Below are positions 2,979 to 43,798 of a stretch of DNA of 64,000 nucleotides, piece after piece. Both the position numbers and the translations under genes were made by a program. Every line of letters starts with the position of its first letter. Position 1 is the stretch's first letter. The DNA comes from Brachionus manjavacas (taxonomy: Eukaryota > Rotifera > Eurotatoria > Ploima > Brachionidae): NCBI GenBank assembly GCA_019054805.1, contig JAHQIY010000037.1:62001-126000 (forward strand), given 5' to 3'. The notes beneath the pieces are model-generated. The model saw only the letters and a list, made by a program, of their open reading frames with translations. It ran no database searches and had not been told where the DNA came from.

Positions 2979-5900
2979 ATGACGCGTCTAAATTTATTGA
3001 AATTTTTTTTTATTAATATTTCACTTGTTAGCCTAAATCCGATAGAAAAAAAAGCCTGTTCGCTTGAAAACAACAATAATTTTGATTACAGTTTAGTATG
3101 TTTTTTTTTTCAATTAGAAATTTAAATTAAATATCTTTTTATTTAGTTAGCAGGTAACTGGTTTGACATCGCTAGAACCAATTTTTATTACAAAACAAAC
3201 ACTTGGAAACATGGTGTTGCAAAAGTAGGAATTGAAAACGACACACTTGAAATAGCGTACACAGCAAAGAACAAGTGACAATATTTTTTTTTGGTCAAAA
3301 ATTTATACTTTTTCTAAAATAAAATTTTAAATTTTAGTTCAAATTATTGTGTTTCGGCACCGAGTTTAAAAGCAAATTTAAATGCTGAAAAGAGCAGTGC
3401 AACATTCACCCAAAGTTCTGGTAATGGATATCTGAAAATTTTGGACATACAAGAAAACTTGGTTGTAGTTTGCTTTTGCTATTCAGCTGATGGGATTCTG
3501 AACTCAAATGCCTGCAATATTGATAAATTAGATATTTTTATCTGGTCCAAATCGAGAATTAACATTACACCAAAATCCAAAAATTTTATATTTGAACTTT
3601 TGCAAAAGTACTGCATCGAAGCTATAGAGGAAATTTTTTTTTCAGATGCGGAAACTGCAAGTTGTTTGGCTGGTCAAGATAAAATGATGACTGCCGATCT
3701 GAATTTAAATATTGAAAAAAGAGAAAATCAAACAGATCAAAATGCTTTTAAACGATTAATACCGGAATATGAAGAAAAAAGAATGAAAAATCAATCAAGT
3801 GAGCTTTATTCATCGGGGATAGATTTGGAAGTCAGTTTTAAATTGATAAATAAATCTTTGGATCAATTGATCATGGGTCGCAATTTTTCTATTAATCACA
3901 TAAATTTCAACCAAAGCGAGCAAGTCGATCGAGAAATAGAAAAAAAAAGCACTTTTAATCAAGAGATTATGTCAATAGAAAACAAAAATGAAAGTTCTCA
4001 TCAACCATTTTCGAATGTAGCAACTTATTTAGATAATGCGGAAAACTTTTCAAATGAAGAAGATTTAGAACATTTCCAAAAAGATGACTCAAAAGAGTAT
4101 GAAGGAAATATAGAAATAAATGAAAATGAAGGGAAAGAAGAAATAAATGGAAATGAAAAAGAAGAAAATAAAGAAAGTGAAGGGAATGAAGAAATAAATG
4201 AAAATGAAAAAAATAAAGAAAATGAAGGGAAAGAAGAAATAAATGGAAATGAAAATGAAGAAAATAAAGAAAGTGAAGGGAATGAAGAAATAAATGAAAA
4301 TGAAAAAGAAGAAAATAAAGAAAGTGAAGGGAAAGAAGAAATAAATGGAAATGAAAATGAAGAAAATAAAGAAAGTGAAGGGAATGAAGAAATAAATGAA
4401 AATGAAAAAGAAGAAAATAAAGAAAGTGAAGGGAAAGAAGAAATAAATGGAAATGAAAAAGAAGAAAATAAAGAAAGTGAAGGGAATGAAGAAATAAATG
4501 AAAATGAAAAAAATAAAGAAAATGAAGAAAGTGAAGGGAATGAAGAAAATAATAAATTGCAGGAAGCAATAATTCCAATTGAGGCTAGGATTTCTAAAGT
4601 TTCAGAAGAGAAAGTCTGTCCGAAGATAAATTGTCCTATCACTCATTGCTCGAATGGACGCAAGAAAGATAAAAAAGGATGTGAAACTTGTGATTGTTTG
4701 AAAGGTCCAGATACTACTTGTAAGATTCCATATTGTCATCCTTGTTTTTATGGATCATTCACTGATGAAGATGGATGTGAGTCATGCGCATGCAAGCCTA
4801 GACCAACGCCCAATAGTATTTATGAGTGTCCAAAGTTAGAGTGTCCGTCATGTAACTATGGGTCAATAAAAGATGAATATGGATGCGAATCATGCATTTG
4901 CATTAGACCAAATTCTCCAGAGCGTTCTTTTAAGTGTCCGCCTGAACCGACATGTCCCTTTGGTGCATGCGAGTATGGCTCAATTTTAAATGAATATGGC
5001 TGCTCGACTTGTGATTGCTTGAAGTCAAACAGCCTCGATCAGCATCAATGCCAAAAATTGCGATGCACCGAAAATTGTCCATTTGGATATTTTACTGATA
5101 AGAATGGATGTGAAACCTGTGTTTGTAAACCAGAATGGATGTCTCCTTGTTATTCGTCAAAAAGTGACTGTGCGGCAGATTGCGAATTCGGAGTATATTT
5201 GGACAGGAATGGATGTGCATCATGTGAATGCCTGCCCGACCCAAATTTAAAAACCTCATGTCTCTTGTTCAAAAATATAAGTGCAAATACCGAATGCAAT
5301 GAAGAAGGTAAATTTTTGCCAAGGCAGTGCAATGAACAAGAGTAAGAATGTGAACATATTTTGACTTAGATTTAAATTAATTTAATTTTAAAGGTGTCGA
5401 TGTGTAACTCAAGATGGAGTTCCGATATCTGATTTTAAAGCAAATGTTTCGGATGCAGAGCAAATGAATTGTGGTAAGAATATAGAACAGAAAAAAAAAT
5501 AAAACAATTCAAAAATTTTAAATTTTTTTCAATTCGAGTCTTAAAGAGAGACATGACTCTTTTATGGAATTGTGAATTTTTATTTATTTTTATACATGTC
5601 CTTTTTTCTTTCACAAAACCAGAGTTGTTTAAAAGTCACAAGTCTCAAGTCAAGTCCAAGTCCGCACTTTTTTCTTTTCAAAAGTCCGAGTCAAAGACTT
5701 TTTTTTTACGATGAATATAATGACTAGAAAAATTTTTTAAGAATTTTAAAATAAAAAATTGTCTTAATCTTGATGACTTGACGTTCCGAGAATCCAAAGT
5801 CAATTTTTTCTCAGGTTTTAAAAATTATTCCTGTTTTTCCATGAAGAGTAATTATTCAGGAACGAAAGATCACGAAAAGTTTGCCTTATTCTCAACTACA

Positions 5901-7609
5901 GTCAAAGCATTTTTTCCTGTCATTTTTTTTGCTTATCATTATCGTGAGATTTTTTTTGCGTTCAATGAATGTGAAGGGACAAAAAATTTCTTCTGTTCCA
6001 GGAAATGATATTTTTACTTTCCCAGGTGGTTATTATGGAAGCCAAGCGAGTGTTGGACTTGTAAAAAAAAAAAAAAAAGTCCGGACTTGGATTTTCTAAA
6101 AAATTAAAATTTATCTATATAATTTTTAGATAGGAATAAATTTAATTTTTAATTTTTTTTAAAGTTTATTTACTAAAGTTCTGGGAAATTAAACCAAAAT
6201 ACTAAAAAAATAAATTCCCATTTTGAAGCGATAATCTTTTTCGTTTGATTATTCTGAAGCACAGAAACTTTTCGAAGGGAATTTTTAGTTGAAATATTTT
6301 TATTTTCTAAACTCTAGTTGATATCCTCATAGTTAATTACTTCTAAGTCTAATTTTGATGGGCTAATAATTTATTTAAGAACTAGAATAATTTCGTACCT
6401 AATTTATGACTGCTATTTTTTCATTGTATCTAAATAATAAGCTATCTAAATATAGTGAATAAATATTTTTTTTTAGTATCTAATTATTTTATCTAAGTAT
6501 CTAAATTTTCTAATTTATTAATAAAAATTCCTAAAAATACACCTAAAATTATTGAAAATAAACCTAAATTAATTTCGAAGTACATTATTAAAAAAAATTA
6601 GATAATTTTGTTTGTTGTTTTTTCTTATGTTATGAGTAGTTGCCCGAGGTTCAACATGTTCACAACAGTTTGTACATTTGATGTCGATTGCGGATTTGAT
6701 GTACCAACTGATTTCTGAATTTCAGCAGGAATATGACAAGGTATTATTTTTTCCAACTTTGGAAAAACATATCGCTATTTGTAAACGCTCTAGCTGCACA
6801 GCCAAAATAATTTTTGGACTAGAACCATGATCAAATAGTTGTTTGGCTAAGTCTTCGATTTTTGTGAAAAAATTATGGTATTATGACATTTCTCAATTAG
6901 AGGTTATTAAAATGCAATTAGAAATTAAATTAGGTAGGTAAAAAATTATTTTAGCTCTCACAAAAATATTAGGCCATTTAGACGATAGCGGTAAAAGAGC
7001 TAACTTTTCAATAAACTAAAAAAATATAATTTAAGTCAAGTCATGAATTTGACTAAATAAAAAAAAAATTGACATTTCCGTAATTTAAGAATGTGCTTTG
7101 GCGCTGTATGAGGCATCACGATTTAAGGCATTTGGCTTCAAACTTTATTGTTCATCAATTGGAAATTATGAGGCTATACAGTGTGTAGGTGCCTCATGTG
7201 CATGTGTAAACGAACACGGGGACCCTTTAGGACCATCCGTACCTATTTATCAAAAACATTTGCTCAGATGTGAAGGGGTTTATCAGCGCGTTTATCATTG
7301 TAAAATTTTTAAAATTAATTATATTAAATTTTTAAGTCTATTTTGACTTTATTTTAAGCAAATTATGCGACAAAAATTGCTCCGATGACCCTGGTGCCTC
7401 CGTTGTGCGTAATTCATAGAGAAAGAGCGTTGGAAATGAAAAGCATAGACAAACATATATCAATACCTGAATGTGATGTCAGAGGTGAATACTTGCCTGT
7501 TCAATGTGACAGACAAAGTAAATATTGTTGGTGTGTGAATACTCATAATGGTATTGAGATATATGGAACTCGACTAATTGGACAAAAACCAAATTGTGAC
7601 CAAATTTAG
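2979..7609 (+). CDS. Secreted lipocalin + antistasin-like x6 + thyroglobulin type-1 x3 fusion protein
   Basis: Six exons join in frame: 2979-3095, 3147-3274, 3338-5341, 5394-5473, 7090-7299, 7359-7609 (929 aa). A hydrophobic N-terminus (MTRLNLLKFFFINISLVSL) looks like a signal peptide. Residues about 39-185 form a lipocalin domain: exon 2 opens with LAGNWFDIAR, the family's G-x-W motif, and a later SRINITPKS segment fits the conserved C-terminal Arg motif. A linker and a Glu/Asn/Lys-rich repeat (about 330-489) follow. Then come six antistasin-like units (about 505-716) with the C-x-x-G...GC-x-x-C-x-C spacing, and three thyroglobulin type-1 repeats (about 717-929) with QC...C-x-CV cores. Antistasin and thyroglobulin-1 domains commonly inhibit serine and cysteine proteases, so an extracellular inhibitor or matrix role is inferred. 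What the lipocalin cup binds is unknown. The start is the only ATG in frame near the signal-like segment. The 7300 and 7359 splice sites are the only pair found that keeps the last repeat in frame. Confidence 0.8.
4090..4560 (+). repeat. In-frame coding tandem repeat (Glu/Asn/Lys-rich, about 51-bp unit)
   Basis: Within the lipocalin-fusion gene, a unit encoding EGNEEINENEKEENKES (17 aa) repeats about eight times. It alternates with a variant reading EGKEEINGNE, giving a higher-order period near 34 aa (102 bp). The encoded segment is strongly acidic and probably disordered, separating the lipocalin from the antistasin block. Long open frames on the opposite strand here are by-products of the repeat. 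Confidence 0.9.
5474..7089 (+). other. Long intron (1.6 kb) of the lipocalin-fusion gene
   Basis: Every other intron in this gene is about 50-65 bp. This one has been enlarged: it contains an AAGTC-rich dispersed element (about 5633-6095) and a further more complex stretch (about 6640-6900) that I could not identify. It separates the two halves of the thyroglobulin type-1 region. Confidence 0.7.
5633..6095 (+). mobile_element. AAGTC-ended dispersed element, copy without a 41-bp array
   Basis: The left end reads AAGTCACAAGTCTCAAGTC, nearly the same as the left end of the element in the last ARS2 intron (43210). The right end (about 6076-6095) has AAGTCCGGACTTGG, a short inverted AAGTC motif. 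A segment near 6020-6045 (AGGTGGTTATTATGG) recurs in inverted orientation at about 63940-63970 at the right edge of the window, which supports a dispersed family. No coding capacity is evident, so the element is probably non-autonomous. Confidence 0.5.
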
Positions 7610-7985
7610 GAGTTTTAAACTTTTGAATTTTAAAATTCGATTTTTCTGCTGTAGATTATTAAATAAATATCTTCGAAATAGAAGATTTTAATAAAAAATT
7701 ATAAACTTTAAAAAAAATTTAAACTTTATAAATTATCTTAAATTATTGCAATTGATTAGGACCAAAAATGAAGAGTTGACATTTTTTTCATCCTATTAAC
7801 TAATACTAACAATAAACAAGATCGTTTGCCAACATAAAACCATATTGACTTGAGATACAGCCAACACAACATTCTTCAATACAAAAAATATCTTCACTCA
7901 ATTTTATTTGTGAATTTTACAGATGCGTTAGTTATAAATATATAAGTTTTTGAAAATTTTTGTTCAATTATTAATTGATTTTAAA
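7610..7985 (+). promoter_or_regulatory. Spacer with likely TATA promoter of the 7986 gene
   Basis: The 376-bp gap between the fusion gene and the next gene contains TATAAATATATAAG at 7933-7946, about 40 bp before the ATG at 7986. In so AT-rich a sequence a TATA match is weak evidence. Its position and its near-unbroken form are compatible with a short 5' UTR. Confidence 0.35.
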
Positions 7986-8983
7986 ATGAAAGTCATTACT
8001 GGAATAATAGCCGTATTTTGCCTAAGTACTGTTTTACTAGGCGCAAGTATCAAACAAAGCCCTGAAGACCTTCTAACAGACCCTGCTGCTCTTGCTTATA
8101 TTGCAGTATTTTTTAATTAATTTTTAATCATTTGAGTGTAAAATTTTGACTAATATTTTTTTAGCAAAAACTTCAAGAAAATCCAGAAGCTTTGCAAGCT
8201 GTTTTATTTTTCCTGGCCTCAAATGGTGTAGATCTACAGGCTCTTCTAGCTGGTGACAGCAATCAACTTAACGATCCTTCACTTATTGATAAATTTAAAG
8301 TAAAAAATAAAATAAAAATCAACTTAAACCAGCTAAAATTATGTAAAAAGGATTTTATTCAACAAAATGAAACTCTAAGAGCTTTTGTACTTGACATATT
8401 GAATCATTTCGGCATTCAAATTCCCAGAATCGATTGGGCTTCTATCGGCTCATCAATTTTAGATGCTATTCCTACTGTTATCGATTATGCTCCAACCATA
8501 ATCTCTGTCATATCTTGGTTCGGAAAAAGAGATATTTCTTTTGGTGTAAATTTATTCAAATTTTTGGAAAATAATTCTTATAAATTTTAATCTAGAACAT
8601 TCACAAAGACTTGTTGCCTAATAGTGTCGTTCTAACATTGATTGCTGCTTTTGAGGTAACTTTCTAGATTAGTGAGTAATTTAAATTTAAAAAAATTAAT
8701 CAAGGGCTTAAAAGTTTCGACTACTGATTTGGCCATTAAAATAAAACAATTTTTGGCTCAAAATGGTGTGAGTGTTGATATTTTACTTGACTCGCTAAAA
8801 AATGGTACATATGGTCAATATTTAACAGCTTCAGTTATTCAAAAAGTTAAAGTATGCTGAAGATTATTTTGAAATTAAAATTTTAAAATGCTCTCAATTT
8901 AGGACTGGCTATCAGTTAATCCAGATGCAGCTAATTACTTTTATGAAAATTTTGGTGACTTCATCTCCCTATTGCCACAATAG
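7986..8983 (+). CDS. Small secreted protein, family unknown (245 aa)
   Basis: Six exons join in frame, all with phase-0 introns: 7986-8105, 8165-8299, 8351-8545, 8596-8655, 8705-8851, 8903-8983. The N-terminus MKVITGIIAVFCLSTVLLGA is a good signal peptide, with cleavage probably after GA. The mature part is Leu/Ile/Asp-rich and probably helical. It contains two similar motifs, FFLASNGVDLQALLAG and FLAQNGVSVDILLDSL, suggesting an internal duplication of an about 30-residue helical unit. No cysteine framework or catalytic motif was seen. The gene at 11297 also has a signal peptide, phase-0 introns and a comparable acidic/hydrophobic composition, so the two may be distant paralogues. Function unknown. 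Confidence 0.75.
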
Positions 8984-9348
8984 ACTCCCAAAAAGCATTC
9001 TAAAATTTAATCTAATAAAAAATTAAGTCAACTAATTTTTTCAATTTAAATAAAATTTCTAAACTTACCAATTTGCCAAATTTTTTCAATCCAGATCAAA
9101 ATATACTTACAGTCTTCGCCATTCTCCCAGCAAATTTAAAAATAAAGAAAATATTTTTTTTCACCTGCTGTGTCATTTTTGACACGACTTGTAAAGCGTA
9201 TCCTTTTAATGCTTTTTAACATATTCTAACAGACTCCCTTTAAAATAAATAAAATTAATAAAAAAATTTAAAAATTTAAAACTGACGATCAATAAATACA
9301 GTTTCGTCAAAAAAACCAAGATTGACACAGGAATAAAATGTCGAATTT

Positions 9349-10118: not shown

Positions 10119-11296
10119 TCTTTTCAAAATGAAAATGAAAATGCTGATACAAACCTTTTAGCACCTTAGCCGAGAATCTTTAAGAAATCATTAATCATTC
10201 TTCATTTTGAAAATGAAAATGAAAATGAATTGATCATTTTAATATTGTTTTTGTTTAAATTAATTAGTAAATTTTTAATTCCAAATCCAAGTAAATACCA
10301 TTTACATGAAAAATATTCTTCTTAAAAACTATTCTGAAGATTTTTTTCAATGTTTCTGTTCTTAGCCCATTCAATAGTTTATTTCCTTTAATATTTACAA
10401 TCTTATAGAGCCAAGCTTGAAAGAAACTATATAATTATTCTCCTAATCACTTTTATTAATTTTTCAGATGAAATAAGACAAAAAATTATCTTTATTTTTG
10501 CATTTAGATAAATTTTAGGATCATAATCTCTAAATTTTTCTAGTACGGAAATGTCTTAGGGAATATATTTCAGAGTATTGAAAAATATCTCTGGACACGT
10601 ATTAAAATTTCCGTTTTACTTTATAATTTAGAATAAATTAGAATCAAAATTTTATGAAATTTTTTTTTAATTTATTAATTTATTACTATTTACAGCAGTA
10701 GAAAATCTGGAAAAAAGGCATTTTTTGTATCGAAAAAATTGCTTCAACAGGAAACATTGAACAAGAATTAGATGACGTCTCACTTGAGTGTTAGAATAAA
10801 AAATGTCTGTCTTTTTTAATAAAGTTGTAAATTTTTAAAATCTAACCAAAATTAATAATTAAGTAATTCTCAATTGTAATCTATATTTTATTATATTTGC
10901 CTATGAGACTTTATATTTAAAAGTTGCATTTCTTTGAAAAAATAGATTTTGATTTTGATAAAAAATTTTCCATGTCTTGATTTTATTCTATTTTTTAAGA
11001 TTTAATAATTCTATAAAAAGATGCATAATTTCGATGTTTATTGATAATTTTTTTAAAGGTGGGCAACTTTGATAGCAGTTGCTAGTTTAAGATCTAGAAA
11101 TTATTTTCTAACACCATTTTTTTATCATTAAACTTGAAATTTCTTAAAATTTTAGAAAATGCTTTATAAAAAACAGAGATTGTACAATTTTCTAGATAAA
11201 CTGGTTTTCGATACCAAATGACAAATGGGCAATTTTTCTCAATATATATTTTATATATATAAAAAATATAAGCCAAAGCATATTCAATAAACGAAA

Positions 11297-12086
11297 ATGA
11301 GATCTTTAACTATCATTGTAACATTGGCGATTGGTATTTGCTTGGGGGCACCAAGACTTCGAAATGAGATATCAAACGAGATAGAAATGAGAAATTTTGA
11401 TCTGATGCTCAATCTTTTACCTTTGTATGGTGGATTTAAGCTCAATCGAATGATCAACCCGACAAGCATCACATTAGCTAAAGTAGATCAAGTAAAAAAA
11501 AAGATAGTGTTTTATAAAAAAATTTCGTTCAAAGGGATTTTTTGAAACAAATATTCATCACTACGAAGCGTTTAGAACAGAACTTGGTGCCGAAGGTGTG
11601 TTATTGCCTGAATTGAGTGAAATTAATTGGAGTGCCATCAAACAAGAAGATTACTCACTCTTGAAGGCTATTGTGGGCGATACAACAATTCAACAAGCAT
11701 TAGAACCAGAATTTTTGCAATATTTGGAGGTATTTTAATCAAGGTAAAGTGATGTTCTGCTTTTTGTTTTTTACCTTAATAAACCTAAATTTAAACAAGT
11801 TAAAAAACATAAATTCACCAGATTTTAGGCAAAATTTCAATAATTTTTAAAAAACAAAAAGCGGCACATCACTCTTTATTTTTTGCATAAATTTAGTTTT
11901 TAGAATTATTTTGTATCAAATCAAAATGTAATTGATTTGTTATACCTACGACTAGATGAAATGAGCATAGTTCTTAATGATACCATAGATACAACAAGCT
12001 TGGGAGACACTTTGGTCAACACGTTTACTCCAATGATTTCAGATTTTTTGCCTACAGCTATCACCATAGCCATTATAGGCAAATAA
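11297..12086 (+). CDS. Small secreted protein, family unknown (190 aa)
   Basis: Three exons join in frame with phase-0 introns: 11297-11491, 11535-11729, 11904-12086. The start MRSLTIIVTLAIGICLGAP is a clear signal peptide. The mature protein is acidic, with few basic residues and many Ile/Leu, and the C-terminal stretch PMISDFLPTAITIAIIGK is hydrophobic. No cysteines arranged for disulfides, catalytic motif or known domain was recognised. Its arrangement resembles that of the 7986 gene about 2.3 kb upstream, with a signal peptide, phase-0 introns and Asp-Leu-rich segments such as LPELSEINWSAIK compared with IPRIDWASIGSS. Common ancestry is suggested but not shown. Function unknown. Confidence 0.7.
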
Positions 12087-13734
12087 ATTTTGCTTAAAAA
12101 TTTACTTAAACATAAAAATTTTATAAATGTTGCAAATTATAATTTTTTTGAATTAATTCCTATTTTTATTTCAAAATTAAATTTAATTTCTGCATTTTTA
12201 TTTATTTTGAATTTATTGATGAAGATACTAAAAAAAATTTAAATATATTCTTTATTGTAAAAAATTGAAAAGATAAATTTCAATTTTTTTTTGAATTTAA
12301 TGGAATTCAAATTTTTCTTAGAGATCTTGTCTCATTATTCAGGTTAATTCAATTTTGAAGTAATAGAATAGAAAGTCGAGAGTTAATGTTGTAAGATTAA
12401 AGAATAAAAACATTAATAGTTTAAAAAAATTGAATTTCTTTTAAGACTCAAAATAAAATGGCCTTTGTTTCTAATAAATTCAAGTTTTGTCCGATGTATT
12501 CAAACATATCTTTAAAATTAGAATGCGAAGTAAAAGCGACCACTTGACAATGATAAAATAAAATTATCTATTTAATTAATAGGTATAAAAAATTTAATAA
12601 AATTTATCGAATTAATTCTCTGACAAGAAATTGATTTGAAAATTAAGAGTCTTGACCCTATTTTGATTTTTAATTTTTTATGTCAATTCTTTTTCTTAAA
12701 TGCTTTTCTATATTTCATTTAAGTCATTTGAAGACTTAAATAAAATGGTCAAAGAATTCAAGGAAGCAAGAATAAAAGAAACTAATTGGAAACTAGATAT
12801 TCTAATTACCGATTCAGCTGTAATTGATTAAGGGTTGACTGGGTAGTGGTATAATTTACTATTTTTGTGGTTACAGTTCACTATGGCCCATTAATTATTA
12901 ACTTTTTAAGAATAAAAGAATAAAGGCTTTTGTCAATTTCTCTTGTTATTTACGTAAATCGTTTAAAGCTTTTAAAGAAAAAAGTCAACTTTTTTTTTCT
13001 GAAAATAAATTCTAATATTTTTTTACTGAATTTTAAATAAATTGAAAATTTCGGATAATTGAAGTTCACGATCAAATTTAAATTTCAAAAAAAAATTTTT
13101 AGTTTTAGATTTAAGAAAAAGTTATTTTTATCAATTTTTTTAATAATAAATGACCTGACTTTAATAAATATGATTTTTTAATCTTTAAAAAGGTAGAAAG
13201 TTATATGAATTTATTATATATGAAGTAAAGATAATATCTTAATCAATATTTTGAGATTTTTCAATACAAAACTTAACTTGGTTTCACTCTAATTATTTTA
13301 TAAATATTAAAATATGTTTGAGACTTTATTTGGAGACCTAAATGTGGATTTTTAATTTATTTTAAAAGTTCTCAAATAAAGATTTTTAGTTTCTAGTAGA
13401 AGTAGTAAAATTAACAACAACCAGCTTCACCAACCACCCATCAATCTTTTCCTTTAAACTGTTAGGACAATTTTTATTTCTTCTAGCAATTTGTTCCATT
13501 CATTCACTATTTTATTGGTAAATAGTCGTATCTTCTCGTATCAGGCATTGTGTTTAACTTTAATTGATCCCGTTTAACTTTTACCATATTGATTGCAATC
13601 TTAAAAATTTAAATCATATCACCTCAAAATCGTCTAATTTTTTATTTTAGTGTAAAATTATATCATTTGAGATCTAATAAGTTCTATTAAATCAGAAAAA
13701 CTATTAAAAAGGATTTAAATATCAATTTATTAGA

Positions 13735-20429: not shown

Positions 20430-21690
20430 TCTGCAACTTGAACAAGATTCAAGCAAGTTCTTCTGAGCTGTAGCAGATACTTCACGATTTTCAATGAGCC
20501 ACTTGTCAAGTTTCGATTTGAAACAGTTCAAACTTCTTGCTTCGACCACATCCACCGGCAGACTGTTCCAAACGTTCACAACCCTATTAACAAAAAAGTT
20601 AAATCTTGGTAAACAATTTCTTAACTTGCTCTCGATGCATTGATTTTCTGTGCTTTCTTAAATTGTAGCTTGATTCGTAACCGATATCTAGTCCATTTAC
20701 AAAATTCACACTCCTTAAATTGTTTGCCAATTTGTACATTTGAATTAGATCTCCCCTCTTTTAAACATTGCGCATAGTCGAGGTTTTTAAGACCTGAAAT
20801 AAGTTTTGTGGCTCTTCTCTGCACCTTTTCTAGTTCGATAACTTCTTTCTCGAGAAACGGACATCAAGTGCTAATAGCGTAATCTAAGTGCGGTCTCACT
20901 AACCATGTATAAAGAAGCTTGATATTATTTCTTTCTCGGAATTTAAATGCTTTCCTAATCATGACTAATATTTTGTTTGCTTTTGCTGTACAGTTTCGTA
21001 TTTGGATGTTCCATTTAAGTCATGATTTATATATATCCCAAGATCCTTCTCACAAACTGACTTGGTAGATGGTTTTTAGTTGGGCCAAATTGAATATTAT
21101 AGTCAAATTTCTTGTTTAGCCTTCCAAAATGTACAATCTTACACTTATCGGCATTTAAATTTGTAGACCAATCACTAGACCATATTGCCACATTATCCAA
21201 ATCTTTCTGTAATGTTTCAGTTGGCCTTAAGTTTTTTATGACTGAGATCATTTTGGTATCATCAGCGTAGGCTTCACAATGGGAATTGGTCATCTCCAGC
21301 ATGTCATTTATATAAATAATGACTAGTATAGGTCCTAAAACGGATCCTTGTGGTACACCACTTGTTACCTCGGGCCAATCAGATTGATGCTCTCCCAGCA
21401 CCACTCTTTGGGTACGGCCAACTAAAAAATCTCTGATCCATCGTATCAATTTCTCACCAAAACCATAAAATTTAAGCCTATAAAGCAAATTGTGATGAGA
21501 GGCTTTGTCAAACGCCTTAGCGAAGTCAGCATATATAGCATCAACTGGAAAACTACTTGAAAAAGCATTTGTAATGACGTCGATTGTTTCTAGCAGATTT
21601 GTAGTACACGACTTATTAGAGATAAAACCATGTTGAGCAGCGGATATTAAATCATTTTCCAAAAGGTTTTTTAACATGATATACTCCTGT
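20430..21690 (-). pseudogene. Jockey/CR1-like LINE, reverse transcriptase relic
   Basis: This minus-strand element has lost its 5' half. The longest intact piece (21027-21677) carries reverse transcriptase motifs in order: AAQHGFISNKSCTTNLLE, DFAKAFDKASHHNLL, TSGVPQGSVLGPI and the catalytic EAYADDTKM box, then WSTNLNADKCKIVHFGR. Further fragments at 20621-20824 (VQRRATKLISGLKNL) and 20430-20579 (NVWNSLPVDVVEARSLNCFK) are the conserved C-terminal part, now in other frames. At least two frame changes separate them. No endonuclease domain is present, so the copy is 5'-truncated. It cannot move by itself. Confidence 0.85.
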
Positions 21691-24681
21691 AATTATTTAT
21701 ATCTGATATGTCTCCTTTATTTTTAAAAATATTCACTTGAGATAGCATTGTTTAAATGGAATGCACTCTGCAATGTGCATTTTGATATTACAGATTTTAC
21801 ATTTAGATACAAATTCTCAGCGTTAACTCTCAAGTTTATTTTATTTAAAAATATGAGTAAATACAAAATTAAATATTATTCTAAAAGATGCTGGAAATTG
21901 AACTCTTCTTTAAAAAAATTGAATTAAATATCCAAAGTCAACACCTTTTGTATTTTTTGCTCAACGATTTGAAGATTAAACAAGAAGATTTAAACAAATC
22001 GAACCCATTTTTTACAATAAAGGTTCAACATCAACTTCCATTTGATCATGATTTTCCACCTAAATATTTTTCTGGCAAAAGGATATATTTAGATATATTA
22101 AGCATATAAAAATTTTTTTATGAGAATGAGTTTAAAATTTAGTTCAAATATCCGAAAAATTATCAATTTAATTAAAATAGCCAAAATTTAAATGAAATCA
22201 CATGATTTTGAGACTTCAAATATTTAAAATAAAGCTAAAATTCAAAAAGTACAATCATAGATTTGTTCAGAATTTGTTAAGTTTATTGAAAAAAAAATGG
22301 GATCTTAAGTGATTTCTGTGACTACAGACTATTCAAGTGAAAAAAGCGTTTTTTTTGGTTTTTCTTAAAAGTTAAAAATTGGCAAACTCTTTTTCTAAAA
22401 ATAAATACACAAAAGAGAGTAGAATTGTTTTTAGATCCCTGAGTATAAACTTTTATTTTGAGCCTTTCATAAAAAAGAAACTTAGGGTTTCGAGGACGTT
22501 TGAAAAAAATTTGAAATATCAATTTGAAAATCGAAAAAAATGCATTAAGCAAACCTTTTAGAAAGACTTATTTTAACAAATTTTTCCTTTAAAGAATTTA
22601 AAAAATGTGACTAGGTATAACTAAAAAAAAAGAGAAAATATACATTACTCTTTTTATTTTGCTTGGGGATGTCATTAATTGTTAATGCTATTTATTAATT
22701 TCAAAAATTTGCAAAAAAAATAGAAAAGATAAAAATAAATGATTGATAAAGATAATTAATTTAAGAAAATATCAAACACATACAAAAATTTTGAATTTTG
22801 AATATTTTTTTGAAAATTGAGAAAAATTGCATTGAGCAAAATTTTTTCATAAAATAAATCCTGATGTTTTTGTTAACAAAATTTTCCAGTCTAATTAATT
22901 GATTCATTAAATTTACCAGATTTAACTCCTCATGAATTAATCTAGCTCGCATTTTATTGACACAAACACATACTATGCTTCTTTTCAAATTTTAAGGAAC
23001 ACAATATTAGATCATTAATAAATTGTACACAGATAAAAATTTTAAATTGAAAAAAATTTCATTTAATTAAAGTCTTGTTATTTACTTTTATTCAAATTCA
23101 GAAACTAAATTTCGAATTTTTCAGCAACAAAATTGTAGGAAAAGCAAACAATATGGTGACCTTACGAATAACAATCTACAGGGTGATGAAGGCAGAGCTT
23201 GGAAAGGGACTGTGCTCTAAACACAGAACACACTATCATCCTAGCCAACTGGAGCATCGGATCCGAGGTCCCCATTCCTCTCAACATCGAACCAAATTAT
23301 CAAAAGTTAACCAGTTATCCACGACACTCTTTTACCTCTTCAAACATTTTTATCATCTTTTAATTAATTATTTACTGACATAATGAATTTTACTGATTAA
23401 GTGTACATACCACAGTTACTATATAGCTTGCTAGCTTGTTGTAACTTATATTATTATTATTATTTTAATTTAAGAAATGAAATTTTTTCAAAATTGAAAA
23501 ATTAATCATCAGATATCAAGATGTCAAAATTAATTAATTTAAATCGAAAAAAAGTCTAGTTTAGTAGATAATGACTGAAAAGCACAGAGGGTTTTGCTTT
23601 TGACATTGACTGTCCATAAAATCTAAAATGCTTTTGTCGGTCAATGAGTCAAATAAAACTAGGTAATTAATCACATAACAAAACTTAAGCCAGACTTTTT
23701 ATTACATTCTGTCCCTAAAACATGGTCTGATTTTTGGTAAAAATTTAAAAATTGTTTTGAACGAGATTAGAAAAGAAAATTAAAATGAAGCATAATTTTA
23801 TTTTGAAGAGAGGGTCAAGTGCAATATAGCATAAGAAAAAATCGGGTTAATAAAATATTTTTCTTTTTTTTTTTAATTAAAAAATTAAAAAAAAACAATA
23901 GATTAATTTATTTTATGCTTAAACAACTATTTTAAAAGGAAAAAAAATAATTTAAAATCCAAGTGACACTCGGAATATAAAAAATTGATTTTCTAAAAGC
24001 AAATGCATTTATAAAAAATTACCTCAGAAATATTTTTAATCATCAATTAATTAAAATTGTAGATAAAGTTTTTGCTTTAACCTTTAAAAGCAAACTAATA
24101 TAAATTTGTAAGAAAGTCGTTTATTTCTACAACGAATTCATCTTTTTTTCGAAATTTTTTTGTTTTTTCAAAAGAAAATATATTATAATTATTTATTTAG
24201 AAAGTGCGCCATATGGGTCATGTAATTCATATATAATTTTTTTTAAGATTCAGCAAAATCCAAAATTTGGACCTTTTGCTTTAGGATGAACACACGAAAA
24301 TATGCTTCTAAATTTAACCAAACACTACAGCTTTAATTGAGATGTTTGCCTGTTAAAATTTGACGGCTAGATTACTATCATGATAGAAAATGTTGTTTGT
24401 TTAAGTTAATTTTGCATTAATATTTCAAATTCAGAACCTGTTTTAATGCGATTTTGATTATAATGCAAATTTAAATTTTAATTAATTATAAACTAAAATA
24501 TATTTTTGAAATTGGATTTTTTAACATAGAGATTAGAAGAAAATTCTATAAAGGATATTAGACTCTCTCTCTCTTAAATTCTTCTTATTAATATCCAAGA
24601 TACTGAAATTGAAAAATAACTAATTTTTAATTAAAAAAAATTTTCAAGATTTTTAGATTATGACAACATCAATTTAGCAAA
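21691..24681. other. Intergenic stretch
   Basis: The sequence is AT-rich. An ATG-started 73-codon frame at 21888-22109 (MLEIELFFKKIELNIQ...) has no recognised domain and no supported splice partners. A more GC-balanced patch at about 23150-23330 ends in ATT short repeats (23446-23466) and looks like the 3' end of an unidentified retroelement. Nothing else is supported. Confidence 0.4.
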
Positions 24682-28388: not shown

Positions 28389-28997
28389 TTATTCATCATT
28401 TTCGTCTTCATCAAATTTGATTCCCGTAGGTTTCTTTTTTTTAACTATGCTGTTTGTATTTTTTCGTTTTGAAGTGTGTTTTGAGATGCTAAATTTCTTA
28501 AGACCCGTTGACTCGGAATCATGCGACGATTGATGATGAATTAAACTCGAAGTCTTGTTCGTTTCATTAGGAATGAAGCCATTTTGTTTGATTAGTTTTA
28601 CATTCTCGGTCTCTAATTTTAGATTTTTTTCAAATAATCTAAAAATTAGATTTTTGAGTTCCATTTTTGATGTCTTGGAATATTTAAGAATTATTTTGAT
28701 ATCTTTTTTTAACAATTTGAATTCAAGATCGTCAACTGTGTTGTCATTTGGTAGATTATTAAGTTCGAATTGCTCAGAATTTATCAAAGAATGCAATTCT
28801 TCGTGATCTATGCCATTTATTTTAAAAAATTCTTCTTCCACCGAGTACTTCCATATATCTTCTCCATTAGTTACAATCATGATTAATTCTTTCCTACATT
28901 CTGGCTTGGTTTCATCTGACTCCTTAAAGTATATTAAATAGCGACCATTTTGTTTGATATCGTAAAAGGAATTTATTTTATCAATAAGATGATTCAT
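28389..28997 (-). CDS. PAXX-like non-homologous end-joining factor
   Basis: This is a single exon of 202 aa, starting at the minus-strand ATG at 28997. The N-terminal part (RYLIYFKESDETKPEC...ELIMIVTNGEDIWKY) resembles the XRCC4-like head of PAXX, where the human protein reads RFVCYCEGEE...LYVTDAAELW. A predicted helical/coiled-coil segment (about 105-140, MELKNLIFRLFEKNLKLETE) follows. The basic C-terminus VKKKKPTGIKFDEDE matches the human PAXX Ku-binding tail (KSKKPAGGVDFDE). PAXX stabilises Ku and the ligase complex at DNA breaks. Length is close to the human 204 aa. Identification rests on the head pattern and the tail motif. A structure-based comparison would be more convincing because the family diverges quickly. 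Confidence 0.7.
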   Translation of the reverse strand: MNHLIDKINSFYDIKQNGRYLIYFKESDETKPECRKELIMIVTNGEDIWKYSVEEEFFKINGIDHEELHSLINSEQFELNNLPNDNTVDDLEFKLLKKDIKIILKYSKTSKMELKNLIFRLFEKNLKLETENVKLIKQNGFIPNETNKTSSLIHHQSSHDSESTGLKKFSISKHTSKRKNTNSIVKKKKPTGIKFDEDENDE

Positions 28998-30556
28998 TCT
29001 ATATCATTTGTTTACAAATAATTAATTAAAAAATCAATAATTGGACTTTTTGAATATTTTTTTAACTTACTTTAAATCGAATTTTAAATGATCATATGCA
29101 TTACAGATTTTGTTAATTTAATTTTAGTTTCTCACATGATTTTTTTCTGAATCCTTTCAAATTAGGTCTAACTTAACTTTTTCAGGTGGTCCAAAAAAAG
29201 CGGAATACGGAATTCCGTAATAAAAAAACTTCTTCAATTCCGCAAAAAAGTTCCTTAATTCCATAGAGCACATAATAAAAGGAGGAATATCTGCCTTTTT
29301 TTAGATTTATTGATTCCGTAGATATATAAAAAAAATTTTGTTGTTTTTTTTTTTAAATTTTTTTTAAAAATTATTCAATTTTTTTTTAATAATTGTTTTA
29401 TTGCATTTGAGTTTAAAAAATTAAATTTTAAAATTTCTAGATCTTTATTCTAAAACTACTAACTAATAAAAAGAAACTAAATTATAATATATTTAGAAAG
29501 GAAAAAGAGAGAAAGGGGTCTGGGTACCACTTCGATGATACATATAATACTACTATTCATTTTGTACTCATGGCTAGTTTTTTTTTTCAACTGATTCAAA
29601 TTAAAACAATCACAATTGATTTTAAAAAAATTCTTGAAAAAAATTATTTTAAAATAAAATAAAATCTTTTTATTAATTAAGTGTTTTTAATTAAGGGAAT
29701 TCTAGAAAAAAAATTTTTACACCAAGGGTTCCAAAAATAGCAAACCCTTTAAAAAGTTGTTGTTCTTTAAGACTCAAAATCTCAAAGATAAAACTTAAAT
29801 ATACTAAAAAAGTATATATATTCTGAAATAGCATTAAATTCTCTACATGCTGATGTGATTAAAATAGAATAAAAAGGGTGTGCCGGTTTTTGTTGGCTAA
29901 AAAAAGGAAAAAAATGTGTTTTTTCCGGTTAAAATTTATTTATTTTTAAGTATTTATTTTTTTTAAATTATCAAAATCATTAGATTAATAAAGTTTTAAA
30001 ATTTTAAACTTCAATTTTCCAAAAAATTTAATAAAATCGATTATTTCGTTTTATTTTAAAAAATTTTCTTTTCGTAATTTTATGTAATATTGAAAAATTA
30101 AATAAAAAAAATTGGATGATAGAGCATCAAAAAATTTAAAAAATTTTGATTTTCTGAATTTGGACTGGATGCGGCGCTTCCAATGATACCAAAACTGAAT
30201 TTTCTCATGATCTGTTCTAATTGAAAAGCAAAGTCAAAATCGATACATTTATTAGAAAAATTTATCAATCATTTCACAATCAATAAATTGAAAGAACTTG
30301 ATACTCGGCAAAATATCCTAATAAAAACACGATCGGTATTAGTAAATACTCACAGACAAGACCATTGTATAGTGCTATCAATCTGGAATTTGTTTCTCAG
30401 ATCCATATGAAACATAAATTATTTTTTGAACAATGATTAGAGCAGGAAACTCTTAATAAAGATTAAAAAATGCCTGTAATTACTTCAAGAATTGATACTT
30501 CGTTTGGCAGACAATAGAGAGCATAGGAACAAAAGATTAGTGTTGAATGTCTTGAA
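28998..30556. other. Intergenic stretch
   Basis: The sequence is AT-rich. It includes a partial MITE copy (29718-29930). The rest, including the slightly more complex 30170-30550, shows no supported feature. Confidence 0.4.
29718..29930 (+). mobile_element. Partial copy of the 15745 MITE
   Basis: About 210 bp match 15843-16055 closely, including GGTGTGCCGGTTTTTGTTGG and ACCCTTTAAAAAGTTG. The terminal inverted repeats are absent on both sides, so this is an internal fragment or a heavily truncated insertion. Confidence 0.75.
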
Positions 30557-31590
30557 TACAGTATGTTGCAAAAGTTTAGAAATTGGTTATTTGTTGTATT
30601 TTACGAAAAATTGAGTGAAAAAGAAAAAAAATAAAAGCACTAATTTGTAGAATTTTTTTTTCTCTACAATTTGATCAATGACACTCGGAATAAAAATAGA
30701 ATTAACTTTTAGATATTAATAATGAAAAAACTTCCTCTAAAAAATAAAAAATAAAAGTCGGTGCAAAAGTTTAGAAATTTGGGTAATCCTAAAGTTTTAG
30801 CAACCATTGCTACCTTTTTTCACACCTTTATGATTAATTCTTAAATAGCTTCTAATTTTGATTAAATTGTGCTCTTAAACTGCTTAATATAAATACTCTC
30901 CAGCTACTTAGGTCCTTTCTAAATAACTTAACCAAAAAATCTTAATTTTGCCAAAAAATTACCAAAACATGGGTAAAAAAAACGTCTCTAGCCCACTAAA
31001 ATGGCAGATCGTGGGCCTGCTAAAAAGTGGAGATAAAAAGCAAAATGAGATGGCCAACATGTTAGGTGTATCTCCAAAATGTGTCTCTTCAACTAAAAAA
31101 CGATATGAAGAGACTGGTACTGTGTCTGATCGAAGCCGTTCTGGTAGACCTCGGAAGTTGACTTTTAGGGATGAAAATTACATTTTTAGAGAGATAAGAA
31201 AAGATCCTACATCAAGCTATCAAAAACTCGCCACTGATTTTAATTCTAAGACTCAGGAGGTCAGGATAAGTAAGTCTACTGTAATGAGATTTCTCAACAA
31301 TAAAAAGAAAACCCCTTTTAACTATAAAAGATATACAAAAAAGATATAAGTGGTGTTAACAGAGACTTAATTGGACAGTTAAAAATTGGTCCAGAGTTAT
31401 TTTCAGTGACGAGTCCAATTTTGAGGTCTTCAATCGTAAGTCAAGAGTAATCGTAAAAAGGTTTAAAAATGAAAAGTTTCATCCGAAGTTCTGTATACCA
31501 AGGTTACAAAACGGTGGAGGGTCAGCTGGTATCTGGGGATGCATTTCCTACAAAGGCACTGGTATAAGCAACATGTATAATATTGTATAA
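30557..31590 (+). mobile_element. Tc1/mariner element, 3'-truncated
   Basis: The left end starts TACAGTATGTTGCAAAAG, and GGTGCAAAAGTTTAGAAAT recurs as a direct repeat about 200 bp inward (about 30760). This is the IR/DR arrangement known from some Tc1 elements. The transposase starts at ATG 30969 (MGKKNVSSPLKWQIVGLLKS) and carries a paired-like helix-turn-helix and GRPRKL linker. After a frame change near 31349 the DDE domain begins (WSRVIFSDESNFEVFNRKS, with the first catalytic Asp) and continues to GIWGCISYKGTGISN. The sequence then ends in ATAATATTGT repeats near 31570-31600. The second Asp, last acidic residue and right end are missing, so this copy is dead. Confidence 0.85.
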
Positions 31591-32493: not shown

Positions 32494-35388
32494 ATGAGTG
32501 AGGTGAATGGTTTCAATGCAAGCTTGATAAACTCGAACAATTTTAGCAATCATCAAGCACTATCGTCATCATCCATGTCGAGCACTTCAAATCTATCCTC
32601 TTCGTCTACTTCATCCACAACCACTAATTGTGCGATCACAAACTCTTTGTCTAGCAGCGTTTTACCCGACTCCAACATGCCCCTTCTGTCCAATCGCTCT
32701 CAAAGCCCTGTCTTTTTACACGAGATCAACATGCCGCAGTCTGTCGTGGCCGAAAACTGGTGCTTCACCCAAGTCAAGGTCACCAAATTCAGCTACGTAT
32801 GGACCATAAACAACTTTTCGTTTTGCCGCGAAGAAGTCGGCGAAACGCTGAAAAGCTCGACTTTTTCGGCCGGCGCCAACGATAAGCTCAAATGGTGCCT
32901 TCGGGTTAACCCCAAGGGTCTTGACGAAGAAAGCAAAGACTATCTTTCTCTGTATCTGCTGCTGGTGTCGTGCTGCAAAAACGAGGTTCGCGCCAAATTC
33001 AAGTTCTCCATTCTGAATGCAAAAGGAGAGGAAACGAAGGCAATGGAGAGCCAGAGGGCGTACAAATTCGTGCAGGGCAAGGACTGGGGCTTCAAAAAGT
33101 TTATTCGCAGAGACTTTTTGCTGGACGAAGCCAATGGCTTGTTGCCCGACGACAAACTCACTCTTTACTCTGAGGTTAGTGTTGTGACCGACTGTGTGAA
33201 CATAAGTGGCCAAACCTCTATCAATCGGTTCAAAATACCCGAGTGTCGCTTGTCCGATGATTTGAGTGGGCTGTTTGAGAACTCGAATTTTTCCGATGTG
33301 GTGCTTGTGTGTGGCAAAAAGGAATTCAAAATGCACAAGGCCATTTTGGCTTGTAAATAAAAAATTTTTTAAATTATTTTTTTTTCTAAATTGATAGAAT
33401 TTTTACAGTTGCTTATTTTCTAGCTCGGAGCGTGGTCTTTGCGGCCATGTTCGAACATCAAATGCTGGAGGGCAAGAGCAACAGAGTGACAATTGAAGAT
33501 GTTGATTCGGACGTGATGACGGAAGTGTTGCGCTTTATTTATACCGACAAGACGAACGGCATCGACAAGATGGCCGATCTGCTCTTGGCTGCCTCGGACA
33601 AAGTAAAAGAAATTCTAAAAATTTCATTAGTTAGATACATTTTTAAAGATAAATTAAGTATGCTCTAGAGAGATTGAAAGCGTTGTGTGAGGAGTCGCTG
33701 AGCAACAATTTGGACACCGAAAATGCGGCGGACACTCTGGTTTTGGCCGACATGCATAGTGCCAACCAATTGAAGGCTCAAGCCATTGACTTTATTAATA
33801 CGTATGGAAATTTTGATTTTTAAACATTGTGAATTTTAGGACACATATTACAAAGATTGCTTCAGTAGATTGTATCACCTGAGTGCAGCTTCTTTTAATA
33901 CTATGCAGAGTAATTTGTTTATTCGATGTGTGTGGAATATTTTTTTTTGTGAATGTATTGCAGAGGCTGGATTTAGGTGGTACATTGAATTTTTTTTTAA
34001 CCAAAGAAACGTTTTCGAAATTGTGGAAAAAATTGATCAAAAATTTTTTTTTGATCAAAAAAATTTTTTTTTGTTAAGACCTACAGCAAACTTGTTTATA
34101 AGTTTAAGGAAAAATTAATATTGCATCTCTTGAAGACGGCATTCTCATGAAATTGCATATTTTGCCGTTCTAAGCAGATATTGTAGCGGCCACATCAATA
34201 TTTTGCCGTTCTAAGCAGATATTGTAGTGGTCACATCAATATTATACCGTTCTAAGTAGATATTGTAGCGGCCACATCAATATTTTGCCGTTCTAAGCAG
34301 ATATTGTGACGACCACATCAATATTTTGCCGTTCTAAGCAGATATTGTAGTGGTCACATCAATATTATACCGTTCTAAGTAGATATTGTAGCGGCCACAT
34401 CAATATTATACCGTTCTAAGTAGCTATTGTAGCGGCCACATCAATATTTTGCCGTTCTAAGCAGATATTGTGGCGGCCACATCAATATTTTGCCGTTCTA
34501 AGCAGATATTGTAGTGGTCACATCAATATTATACCGTTCTAAGTAGCTATTGTAGCGGCCACATCAATATTTTGCCGTTCTAAGCAGATATTGTGGCGGC
34601 CACATCAATATTTTGCCGTTCTAAGCAGATATTGTGACGACCACATCAATATTTTGCCGTTCTAAGCAGATTTTGTGGCGACCACATTAATATTTTGCCG
34701 TTCTAAGCAGATATTGTGACGACCACATCAATATTTTGCCGTTCTAAGCAGATTTTGTGGCGACCACATCAATATTTTGCCGTTCTAAGCAGATATTGTA
34801 GCGGCAACATCAATATTTTGCGTTCCAAGCAGTTATTGTAGTGGCCACATTAATATTTTTCCATTCTAATCAGATATTGTGGCGGCATTTGGAATTTTTG
34901 TCAGGGAGCGAAAAAATTTAGAGTTTTCTTTAAAAAAAATTATTCGACTTTAGACTAGTGACTTAAAAGCAATTCTGCTTTGGAGCAAATTTGCAATTTC
35001 ATCAGTTGATACAAAGTTTGTATCAATCAAAATTTGTCTTTGTAATTTAGTTTTAGTTATCAAAAAAATAAATTTTTCAACTGCTACATTCAGCTAGACA
35101 AAGAAGAGCTTTTAAAATTTAAATTATTTTTTTGTTCCTTGATTCCAAAATTTACATTGCCAATATTCAGTTTTTGTCTTTTTGTACTAAAATTCACAAT
35201 ACAACTTTTGAAAAACTTGTCTAAAGAAAACTAACTCTTTTTAAAGACATGCGTCAGATGTAATTGAGACATATGGCTGGAAAAATATGACCAAATGTTA
35301 TCCTCATTTGGTGGCTGAAACATTCAAAGCCTTGGTTAATCAACAGAGCCCGACGATCGGGCCAGCTAGAAAGAAACTTAAACTTTAA
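32494..35388 (+). CDS. SPOP: Speckle-type POZ protein (MATH-BTB cullin-3 adaptor)
   Basis: Four exons join in frame: 32494-33352, 33424-33602, 33659-33801, 35247-35388 (440 aa). A Ser/Asn-rich N-terminus of about 85 residues precedes the MATH domain ([76 protein letters not shown]), which is nearly identical to human SPOP. The BTB domain begins [20 protein letters not shown]. The BACK region and a C-terminal [14 protein letters not shown]...HLVAE segment with a basic tail (ARKKLKL) complete the family layout. SPOP recruits nuclear substrates through MATH and CUL3 through BTB for ubiquitination. The N-terminal extension is longer than the short human leader. Exon 1 is distinctly GC-richer than its surroundings. 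The last intron (33802-35246) carries a 41-bp tandem array. Confidence 0.95.
34158..34894 (+). repeat. 41-bp tandem array A (about 18 units) in the last SPOP intron
   Basis: Units of 41 bp built on TATTTTGCCGTTCTAAGCAG, ATATTGTAGCGGCC and ACATCAA repeat without spacers. Unit types differ in a correlated way: GCGGCC is usually followed by TTTTGCCG, and GTGGTC by TTATACCG. The left flank (CTCATGAAATTGCATATTTTG) and a right flank with GACTTTAGACTAGTGACTT (34946-34964) are shared with array B at 43302. The array is therefore probably the body of a dispersed element, not a locally born satellite. Confidence 0.95.
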
Positions 35389-43200: not shown

Positions 43201-43798
43201 TTTGTTTCTAAGTCACAAGTCTTAAGTCAAAGTCATGATTTTTATTTTAAAGGTTAAGTCAAAATTAACATTTCAGTTAAGGGCTTTCTCATGAAGTTGC
43301 ATATTTTGCCGTTCCAAGCACTTATTGTAGTGGCCACATCAATATTTTGCCGTTCTAAGCAGATATTGTGGCGGCCATATCAATATTTTGCCGTTCTAAG
43401 CAGATATTGTGGCGGCCAAATCAATATTTTGCCGTTCTAAGCAGATATTGTGGCGGCCACATGATCTTTTAGCCGTTCTAAGCACTTATTGTAGTGGCCA
43501 CATGATCTTTTAGCCGTTCTAAGCACTTATTGTAGTGGCCACATCAATATTTTGCCGTTCTAAGCAGATATTGTGGCGGCCACATGATCTTTTAGCCGTT
43601 CTAAGCAGATTTTGTGGCGGCCACATGCATTTTTGACTGACTCGAAGGTTTAAAGAATATAGAATTGAAAATTTTCTTGACCTAAGACTTGTGTCTAACA
43701 AAAAACCATGAATTTAAATTTTGACATTTTTCGTTTTTTTTTTAAGTCAAAGAGAAATGATTCAATACAAAGATTTGGACGCTCCAGACGATGTATAA
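40239..43798 (+). CDS. SRRT: Serrate RNA effector molecule (ARS2)
   Basis: Three exons join in frame: 40239-40735, 41226-43172, 43747-43798 (831 aa). The start MGDSDEEYSHNK matches the family's MGDSD-D/E-EY opening. Residues about 125-240 (SFKQFLQQQDDNISDDEA...KEEEWFKLRYHPDE...LRIFMDLLEKGW) are the Ars2 N-terminal domain. An acidic/Lys-rich insert and an RRM-like part (SIFMPKLSPSVCKEDLEML...RGWITFESNVDVKKI) follow, then the zinc-finger region RWLCPLSGKRFKGPEFIRKH and a Gly/Gln/Tyr-rich tail. The last exon encodes QREMIQYKDLDAPDDV, equivalent to human AIVEYRDLDAPDDVDFF, the C-terminal segment that contacts the cap-binding complex. ARS2 links capped RNA to processing or decay. Reading through intron 2 gives a premature stop at 43176 and loses this end. 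The coding sequence is GC-rich relative to the surroundings. Confidence 0.95.
40736..41225 (+). repeat. ARS2 intron 1 with A/T homopolymer tandem repeats
   Basis: The 490-bp intron (GTATAG...TTTAG) contains four to five imperfect copies of a segment built from TCTTGACCTCAAAATCAATT, TTAGAAAAAATCAAAAAAAA and a T-run. A-runs and T-runs alternate, so single strands could fold into many hairpins. The open frame running from exon 1 into this intron (to 40925) is read-through, not coding. Confidence 0.85.
43210..43697 (+). mobile_element. Element with AAGTC inverted ends carrying 41-bp array B
   Basis: The left end AAGTCACAAGTCTTAAGTC (43210) has an inverted partner at 43679-43697 (reverse complement TAGACACAAGTCTTAGGTC). 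Between them lie about eight 41-bp units (43302-43632) of the same family as array A. The element lies wholly inside the last ARS2 intron (43173-43746). It has no coding capacity. Related ends occur at 5633-6095, 34945-34964, about 46840-46915 and about 63890-63990. Confidence 0.7.
43302..43632 (+). repeat. 41-bp tandem array B (about 8 units) in the last ARS2 intron
   Basis: Units match array A (core GCCGTTCTAAGCAG, GGCGGCCACAT), with local variants such as GATCTTTTAGCCG and AGCACTTATTGTAGTGGCC. The orientation relative to the host gene is the same as in array A. Confidence 0.95.

What the first reader, a model, noticed from the sequence alone, without database searches (positions are those of the whole stretch)
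2979..7609. Lipocalin fused to antistasin-like and thyroglobulin type-1 repeats
One continuous six-exon frame joins a lipocalin cup, an acidic repeat spacer, six antistasin-like units and three thyroglobulin type-1 units. Each family is known, and the inhibitor domains suggest secreted protease control. I do not recall this order of domains in any described protein. A ligand-binding cup tied to multi-target inhibitor modules could be a ligand-controlled inhibitor, though that function is speculation.
Basis: partly seen in the sequence, partly recalled or inferred. Interest (0 to 1): 0.8.

Follow-up and report, generated by a model that had tools for sequence, protein, structure and literature searches.

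The report
Lipocalin joined to protease-inhibitor-like repeats
An animal gene appears to encode one secreted protein that puts a small-molecule-binding cup, a long acidic spacer and nine protease-inhibitor-type modules on a single chain; each part is familiar, but this combination was not found described.

Summary
Six exons with GT..AG introns join in frame into 929 residues: a likely signal peptide, a lipocalin (27-195), a glycosylation-rich linker, an acidic 17-residue repeat, six antistasin-like units (509-713) and three thyroglobulin type-1 (Tg1) units (723-926). Exon 3 alone runs open from lipocalin residue 82 through all six antistasin units into Tg1-1, so the core of the fusion does not rest on guessed splicing. 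Tg1 and antistasin pass Pfam. The lipocalin falls below its Pfam cut-off; a bacterial-lipocalin HMM and two low-confidence structure models support it, and a test of its C-terminal motif failed. The functional claim is weaker: none of six antistasin units has Arg or Lys at the predicted P1 site, four have altered loop lengths, and nothing indicates ligand control. Antistasin plus Tg1 proteins are known in arthropods, and vertebrate AMBP joins a lipocalin to Kunitz inhibitors. The layout resembles AMBP, including a cluster of the chain's only three Lys-Arg dipeptides just after the lipocalin, but the inhibitors are unrelated and no furin-type motif was found. Best reading: a new domain combination whose halves act as separate modules, perhaps cleaved apart. 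No transcript or relative could be examined. Moderate interest.

The parts
2979..3095 (+). Exon 1: start codon, hydrophobic signal-like segment (about residues 1-22), start of the lipocalin (C27...NFD)
3147..3274 (+). Exon 2: lipocalin strand A motif LAGNWFDIAR and the region after it
   Evidence: bacterial lipocalin HMM match over this motif
3338..5341 (+). Exon 3, one open frame: lipocalin from residue 82 on, linker, acidic repeat, six antistasin-like units, first half of Tg1-1
3057..3677 (+). Lipocalin domain, residues 27-195 (spans exons 1-3)
   Evidence: against: below Pfam cut-off, hhalign 17.6%, C-terminal HMM at chance
3678..4127 (+). Linker, residues 196-345, with 7 of the 13 N-glycosylation sequons of the protein
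3717..3782 (+). Cluster of the only three Lys-Arg (KR) dipeptides in the chain, at residues 209, 220 and 229
   Evidence: 8 of 10000 whole-chain shuffles place three KR within 21 residues
4114..4548 (+). 51-bp tandem repeat, 8.6 copies, coding a 17-residue Glu/Asn/Lys-rich unit (residues 346-500 have pI 4.1)
4617..5231 (+). Six antistasin-like six-cysteine units (residues 509-535, 543-567, 579-603, 615-642, 653-678, 686-713)
5259..5472 (+). Tg1 unit 1, residues 723-776 (CRCV core), spans exons 3 and 4
5394..5473 (+). Exon 4
7090..7299 (+). Exon 5, holding Tg1 unit 2 (7092-7271, residues 778-837, CACV core)
7359..7609 (+). Exon 6, holding Tg1 unit 3 (7406-7597, residues 863-926, CWCV core) and the stop
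7662..7695 (+). Two AATAAA polyadenylation-type signals (starting at 7662 and 7690)

Best explanation
The locus is one animal gene for a secreted mosaic protein: signal peptide, lipocalin, long acidic flexible linker, six antistasin-like units, three Tg1 units. The modules most likely work independently. The lipocalin carries or sequesters a small hydrophobic ligand. The C-terminal block is a cysteine-rich inhibitor or binding chain whose best candidate activity is blocking cathepsin-type cysteine proteases through Tg1-3. The antistasin units are either elastase-like at most (Thr and Ala at the P1 position in units 5 and 6) or spacers. The linker may be cut at the Lys-Arg cluster so that the two halves separate, as in AMBP. 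Shown: gene structure as read from DNA, order of domains, cysteine patterns, absence of basic residues at the predicted P1 positions. Inferred: transcription as one unit, secretion, ligand binding, inhibition, cleavage.
For: Continuous 675-codon frame from lipocalin residue 82 to Tg1-1 and five phase-consistent introns. Pfam hits for antistasin and Tg1. Lipocalin: an HMM of 81 bacterial sequences scores it above 5000 of 5000 shuffles. Foldseek on the alignment-free model of exon 2 plus exon 3: lipocalins in 48 of the 50 rows listed (799 matches in all). On the model of exon 3 alone: 27 of the 50 rows listed (589 in all), among them all 17 listed rows with probability 0.5 or more. Which rows are lipocalins is partly my own knowledge. 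Antistasin P1 residues from an alignment to antistasin 1skz (E=0.0056) and from PMC6265900. KR cluster. No Met between the lipocalin and the antistasin block starts a signal-like segment.
Against: No transcript, no relative from another species, no biochemical data. The lipocalin is below the Pfam gathering score and not listed at all in the full-length scan; hhalign gives 17.6%; its C-terminal part scores at chance with a bacterial model. The KR cluster was noticed after the fact and there is no R-X-K/R-R motif.
Confidence: 0.55

Rival explanations
1. Structural or matrix protein: the antistasin and Tg1 units are disulfide-rich building blocks without inhibitory activity, and the acidic, glycosylated linker serves hydration or cation binding, for example in a secreted coat.
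For: No Arg/Lys at any of six predicted P1 positions, altered loop lengths in 4 of 6 units, Tg1-1 and Tg1-2 lack the CWCV core, very acidic repeat. PMC12838937 (passages) cites a leech cocoon protein of six antistasin-like plus EGF repeats.
Against: Tg1-3 is canonical and matches the inhibitory p41 fragment at E=3.1e-08. A matrix protein does not obviously need a lipocalin.
Confidence: 0.25
2. Ligand-controlled inhibitor: ligand binding in the lipocalin switches the inhibitor block. A cousin of this idea is that the lipocalin is itself an inhibitor, as in the lipocalin-derived family I59.
For: Only the physical linkage; for I59, a passage of PMC5673224.
Against: About 310 residues of acidic, repetitive, probably disordered sequence separate the two, which speaks against allosteric coupling; a KR cluster suggests separation instead.
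Confidence: 0.05
3. Artefact: two genes joined by misassembly across the 51-bp repeat, or normally expressed as separate isoforms.
For: PMC12964723 (abstract) reports that the majority of helminth-specific domain fusions examined are likely annotation artefacts and have longer interdomain regions, as here. A tandem repeat lies between the halves. Intron 4 is far longer than the others, and reading past the exon 4 donor gives a stop at 5500-5502 beside an AATAAA at 5498 (read by eye).
Against: The join is inside one uninterrupted exon frame, not across a predicted intron. No separate signal-like start before the antistasin block. A 14-base probe of the repeat occurs in the window only inside this array. 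Early termination after exon 4 would keep the lipocalin-antistasin fusion.
Confidence: 0.1

Closest known systems
[quoted passage not shown]
   Same: Precursor with a lipocalin and protease inhibitor modules; the halves are separated by proteolysis (PMC2268946 and PMC11063272, passages seen; that the lipocalin comes first is recalled).
   Different: AMBP carries two Kunitz domains; here antistasin and Tg1 units follow a long acidic repeat, and no R-X-K/R-R motif was found (the furin site of AMBP is recalled).
WAP-antistasin-Tg1 proteins of arthropods (thyropin subgroup; PxSPI44 of Plutella xylostella)
   Same: Antistasin and Tg1 units in one chain (PMC3407033, PMC5309989, passages seen).
   Different: These have WAP, Kunitz or WR1 modules; no lipocalin is mentioned in the passages seen. 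Whether the antistasin-Tg1 part here is homologous to theirs was not tested.
Saxiphilin
   Same: A ligand-binding protein carrying Tg1 units (two Tg1 in a transferrin; PMC10889554 passages); Tg1-3 matches it at E=6.8e-21.
   Different: Transferrin scaffold rather than lipocalin, Tg1 embedded rather than appended; no antistasin (recalled).
Leech antistasin-type inhibitors (antistasin, hirustasin, poecistasin)
   Same: Six-cysteine core; unit 5 aligns with antistasin 1skz.
   Different: No Arg, Lys or Met at the predicted P1 position, 2- or 4-residue loops in four of six units, and no extra cysteines between units for the N-terminal subdomain of the ten-cysteine leech domain.

Membership tests
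Lipocalin | Pfam PF00061 gathering score | tested here: not met
   14.7-15.5 bits against 23 for the region alone; not listed for the whole protein
Lipocalin | First conserved motif, NFD...G-x-W before strand A | tested here: met
   NNFDYSLLAGNWFDIAR aligned by a bacterial lipocalin HMM, 11.0 bits, above 5000 of 5000 shuffles; hhalign aligns the same motif at 17.6% probability
Lipocalin | C-terminal strand and helix motif (third conserved region) | tested here: inconclusive
   HMM of the bacterial C-terminal part scores -0.9 bits, at chance; the AlphaFold2 model of exon 3 has a strand and a long helix there
Lipocalin | Eight-stranded barrel fold | tested here: inconclusive
   Low-confidence models; 48 of 50 and 27 of 50 listed structural matches are lipocalins, TM-scores at most 0.40
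Antistasin | Six-cysteine unit, Pfam PF02822 | tested here: met
   6 of 6 units fit the cysteine pattern; whole protein 62.4 bits against 21.2; singly 3 of 6 pass
Antistasin-type serine protease inhibitors | Arg/Lys (or Met) at P1 and the three-residue loop of the leech proteins | tested here: not met
   P, H, P, P, T, A; loop length 3 in 2 of 6 units
Thyroglobulin type-1 | Six cysteines with QC..C-x-CV core, Pfam PF00086 | tested here: met
   3 of 3 units above cut-off; CWCV in 1 of 3, CRCV and CACV in the others
Thyropin (inhibitory Tg1) | Inhibition of a cathepsin | not testable with these tools
   Only similarity to p41 and saxiphilin
AMBP | Lipocalin followed by Kunitz domains | tested here: not met
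   No Kunitz row in Pfam at E up to 10
AMBP | Cleavage site between lipocalin and inhibitor | tested here: inconclusive
   Three Lys-Arg dipeptides at 209-230, no R-X-K/R-R

The most novel reading that the evidence does not exclude
A second, independently evolved lipocalin/protease-inhibitor precursor: an invertebrate counterpart of AMBP, in which a convertase cuts at the Lys-Arg cluster and one gene supplies a ligand carrier together with a chain aimed at cysteine cathepsins and small-residue-cleaving serine proteases. It would show that coupling these two functions in one transcript has arisen more than once.
Probability: 0.2. Interest if true: 0.6.

Novelty: new variant of a known kind. Interest (0 to 1): 0.42.

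Why it matters
If transcripts confirm it, it is a new combination of a lipocalin with two inhibitor families, and a natural test of whether AMBP's pairing of a lipocalin with protease inhibitors reflects a shared need or chance. It also supplies a set of antistasin units without the usual P1 residues, useful for asking what such repeats do when they are not trypsin-type inhibitors.

Tried and rejected
Whole-genome search was not possible: no genome is held for this window. One viral-contig scan for antistasin relatives matched 5 stretches by pattern, none confirmed. Direct sequence search of the PDB with the lipocalin gave 4 rows at E=0.42 to 0.95, none a lipocalin. The C-terminal half of the lipocalin failed against a bacterial HMM. 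A competing weak Pfam match, PF09294 (E=0.029-0.059), was set aside because the structural matches point to lipocalins. Trypsin-type or factor Xa inhibition was rejected for lack of Arg/Lys at P1. Paralogues: tblastn of the three parts against the window found only the gene itself.

Literature, all by full-text word search of open-licence papers: 0 papers hold lipocalin, antistasin and 'thyroglobulin type-1' together (the spelling 'type I' was not searched with lipocalin); 0 hold rotifer and antistasin. Three hold antistasin and 'thyroglobulin type', of which the brittle star paper PMC11310086 was seen in the listing only. Tick salivary papers that hold both thyropin and lipocalin were seen in the listing only. 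This is weak evidence of absence. PMC2667189 (passages) reports five lipocalin transcripts in the rotifer Brachionus plicatilis, and PMC8878817 (passages) has no thyroglobulin or lipocalin mention. Neither was used in the argument. Animal origin rests on the intron-rich gene content and neighbours such as a PAXX-like frame (that PAXX is an animal gene is recalled); a rotifer origin was not tested.
Full report
Gene structure. Exons at 2979-3095, 3147-3274, 3338-5341, 5394-5473, 7090-7299 and 7359-7609 all have GT..AG introns in compatible phases and give 929 residues and a stop. Four introns are 51-63 nt and 10-17% GC; intron 4 is 1,616 nt and 26% GC. By codon scores trained on nine other open frames of the window, the chosen frame is best in 5 of 6 exons; in the 80-nt exon 4 another frame scores slightly higher but holds two stops. 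Two AATAAA signals follow the stop. Exon 3 lies in a single 675-codon open frame, expected by chance at about 2e-28. It contains the lipocalin from residue 82 on, the linker, the acidic repeat, all six antistasin units and the first half of Tg1-1 (3 of its 6 cysteines). The core of the fusion therefore needs no splicing assumption.

Domains. Pfam finds Tg1 (E=2.3e-22) and antistasin (E=5.4e-17) in the whole protein. Cut apart, 6 of 6 antistasin units and 3 of 3 Tg1 units hit their families; 3 of 6 and 3 of 3 pass the curated cut-off, and the weakest antistasin unit has E=0.11. All six antistasin units have the six-cysteine pattern and all three Tg1 units have six cysteines.

The lipocalin needed more work. 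In the full-length Pfam scan it is not listed even at E up to 10. Given alone it scores E=0.035 (residues 1-221) and 0.02 (residues 26-194), below its cut-off, with an unrelated family close behind. An HMM of E. coli Blc and 80 bacterial relatives scores 11.0 bits at the NFD...GNWFDIAR motif; 5000 shuffles reach at most 7.1 and the reversed sequence -2.2. hhalign aligns the same motif with only 17.6% probability, E=0.0014 for one comparison. The C-terminal part of the bacterial HMM does not recognise the protein (-0.9 bits; shuffles reach 7.7). AlphaFold2 without any alignment gave an antiparallel sheet followed by a long helix (pLDDT 46, pTM 0.50). Of the 50 Foldseek rows listed (799 matches in all), 48 are lipocalins; none has E under 0.001 and TM-scores are at most 0.40. 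Because that model contained 21 intron-derived residues, exon 3 alone was modelled (pLDDT 57, pTM 0.56). Then 27 of 50 listed rows (589 in all) are lipocalins, and so are all 17 listed rows with probability 0.5 or more; the top row by E-value is not, and TM-scores stay at most 0.38. Naming the rows as lipocalins rests partly on my own knowledge of the entries. Taken together a lipocalin is likely (about 0.85), of an unusual, diverged kind with seven cysteines.

What the inhibitor modules can do. PMC6265900 (passages seen) puts the P1 residue of poecistasin at Arg27, which is the residue after the second cysteine of the six-cysteine core. [quoted passage not shown] Here the residues are P, H, P, P, T, A, and the loop has poecistasin's length of three only in units 5 and 6. 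Unit 5 aligns with antistasin 1skz with Thr at the Arg position, in a weak match (E=0.0056). Coagulation-type or trypsin-type inhibition is therefore unlikely. Tg1-3 is canonical, with a CWCV core, and matches thyroglobulin, saxiphilin and p41 (E=1.6e-49, 6.8e-21 and 3.1e-08). [quoted passage not shown] The best-founded activity is thus against cysteine cathepsins, but nothing here measures it.

The linker. Between lipocalin and antistasin lie about 310 residues: 7 of the protein's 13 N-glycosylation sequons at 212-318, then a 51-bp, 17-residue acidic repeat of 8.6 copies. All three Lys-Arg dipeptides of the chain fall at 209, 220 and 229 (other basic pairs, KK and RK, occur elsewhere). 8 of 10000 whole-chain shuffles and 0 of 10000 linker shuffles place three KR within 21 residues. 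This was noticed after the fact, and no R-X-K/R-R motif exists. It suggests, but does not show, that the lipocalin is released, as alpha-1-microglobulin is from AMBP (PMC11063272, passages seen).

Comparison with what is known. [quoted passage not shown] Lipocalin with inhibitors is known in AMBP (PMC2268946, passages). All three together were not found in the paper search, which covers open-licence papers and one spelling only. A caution: the majority of helminth-specific domain fusions examined in one study are likely annotation artefacts and have longer interdomain regions (PMC12964723, abstract). This case shares the long interdomain region but differs in being one uninterrupted exon across the join.

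Verdict. The architecture is real at the DNA level, subject to assembly, and appears to be a new combination of known parts. The ligand-controlled inhibitor idea has no support beyond linkage, and the long linker argues against it. A modular, possibly cleaved, AMBP-like layout is more likely.

Noticed in passing
34157-34886 and 43301-43626: Two arrays of the same 41-bp unit (17.8 and 8.0 copies), about 8.4 kb apart, in otherwise AT-rich DNA; no Rfam family at gathering score anywhere in the window.
   Followed up: partly
21027-21692 (-) and 30927-31346 (+): Reverse transcriptase fragment (PF00078, E=2.3e-23) and an open frame with transposase-type helix-turn-helix matches (best PF13565, E=2.3e-11), probably remnants of mobile elements.
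   Followed up: partly
7986-9000 and 11291-12090: Small genes with signal-like N termini (by eye) just downstream of the finding; tblastn of the first against the window found only itself.
   Followed up: partly
5474-5503: Reading past the exon 4 donor gives a stop at 5500-5502 beside an AATAAA at 5498 (by eye), so a shorter form ending after Tg1-1 is conceivable.
   Followed up: no
28389-29003 (-): PAXX-like open frame (PF15384, E=2.2e-06), a DNA repair factor; an ARS2 frame lies at 41185-43173.
   Followed up: partly
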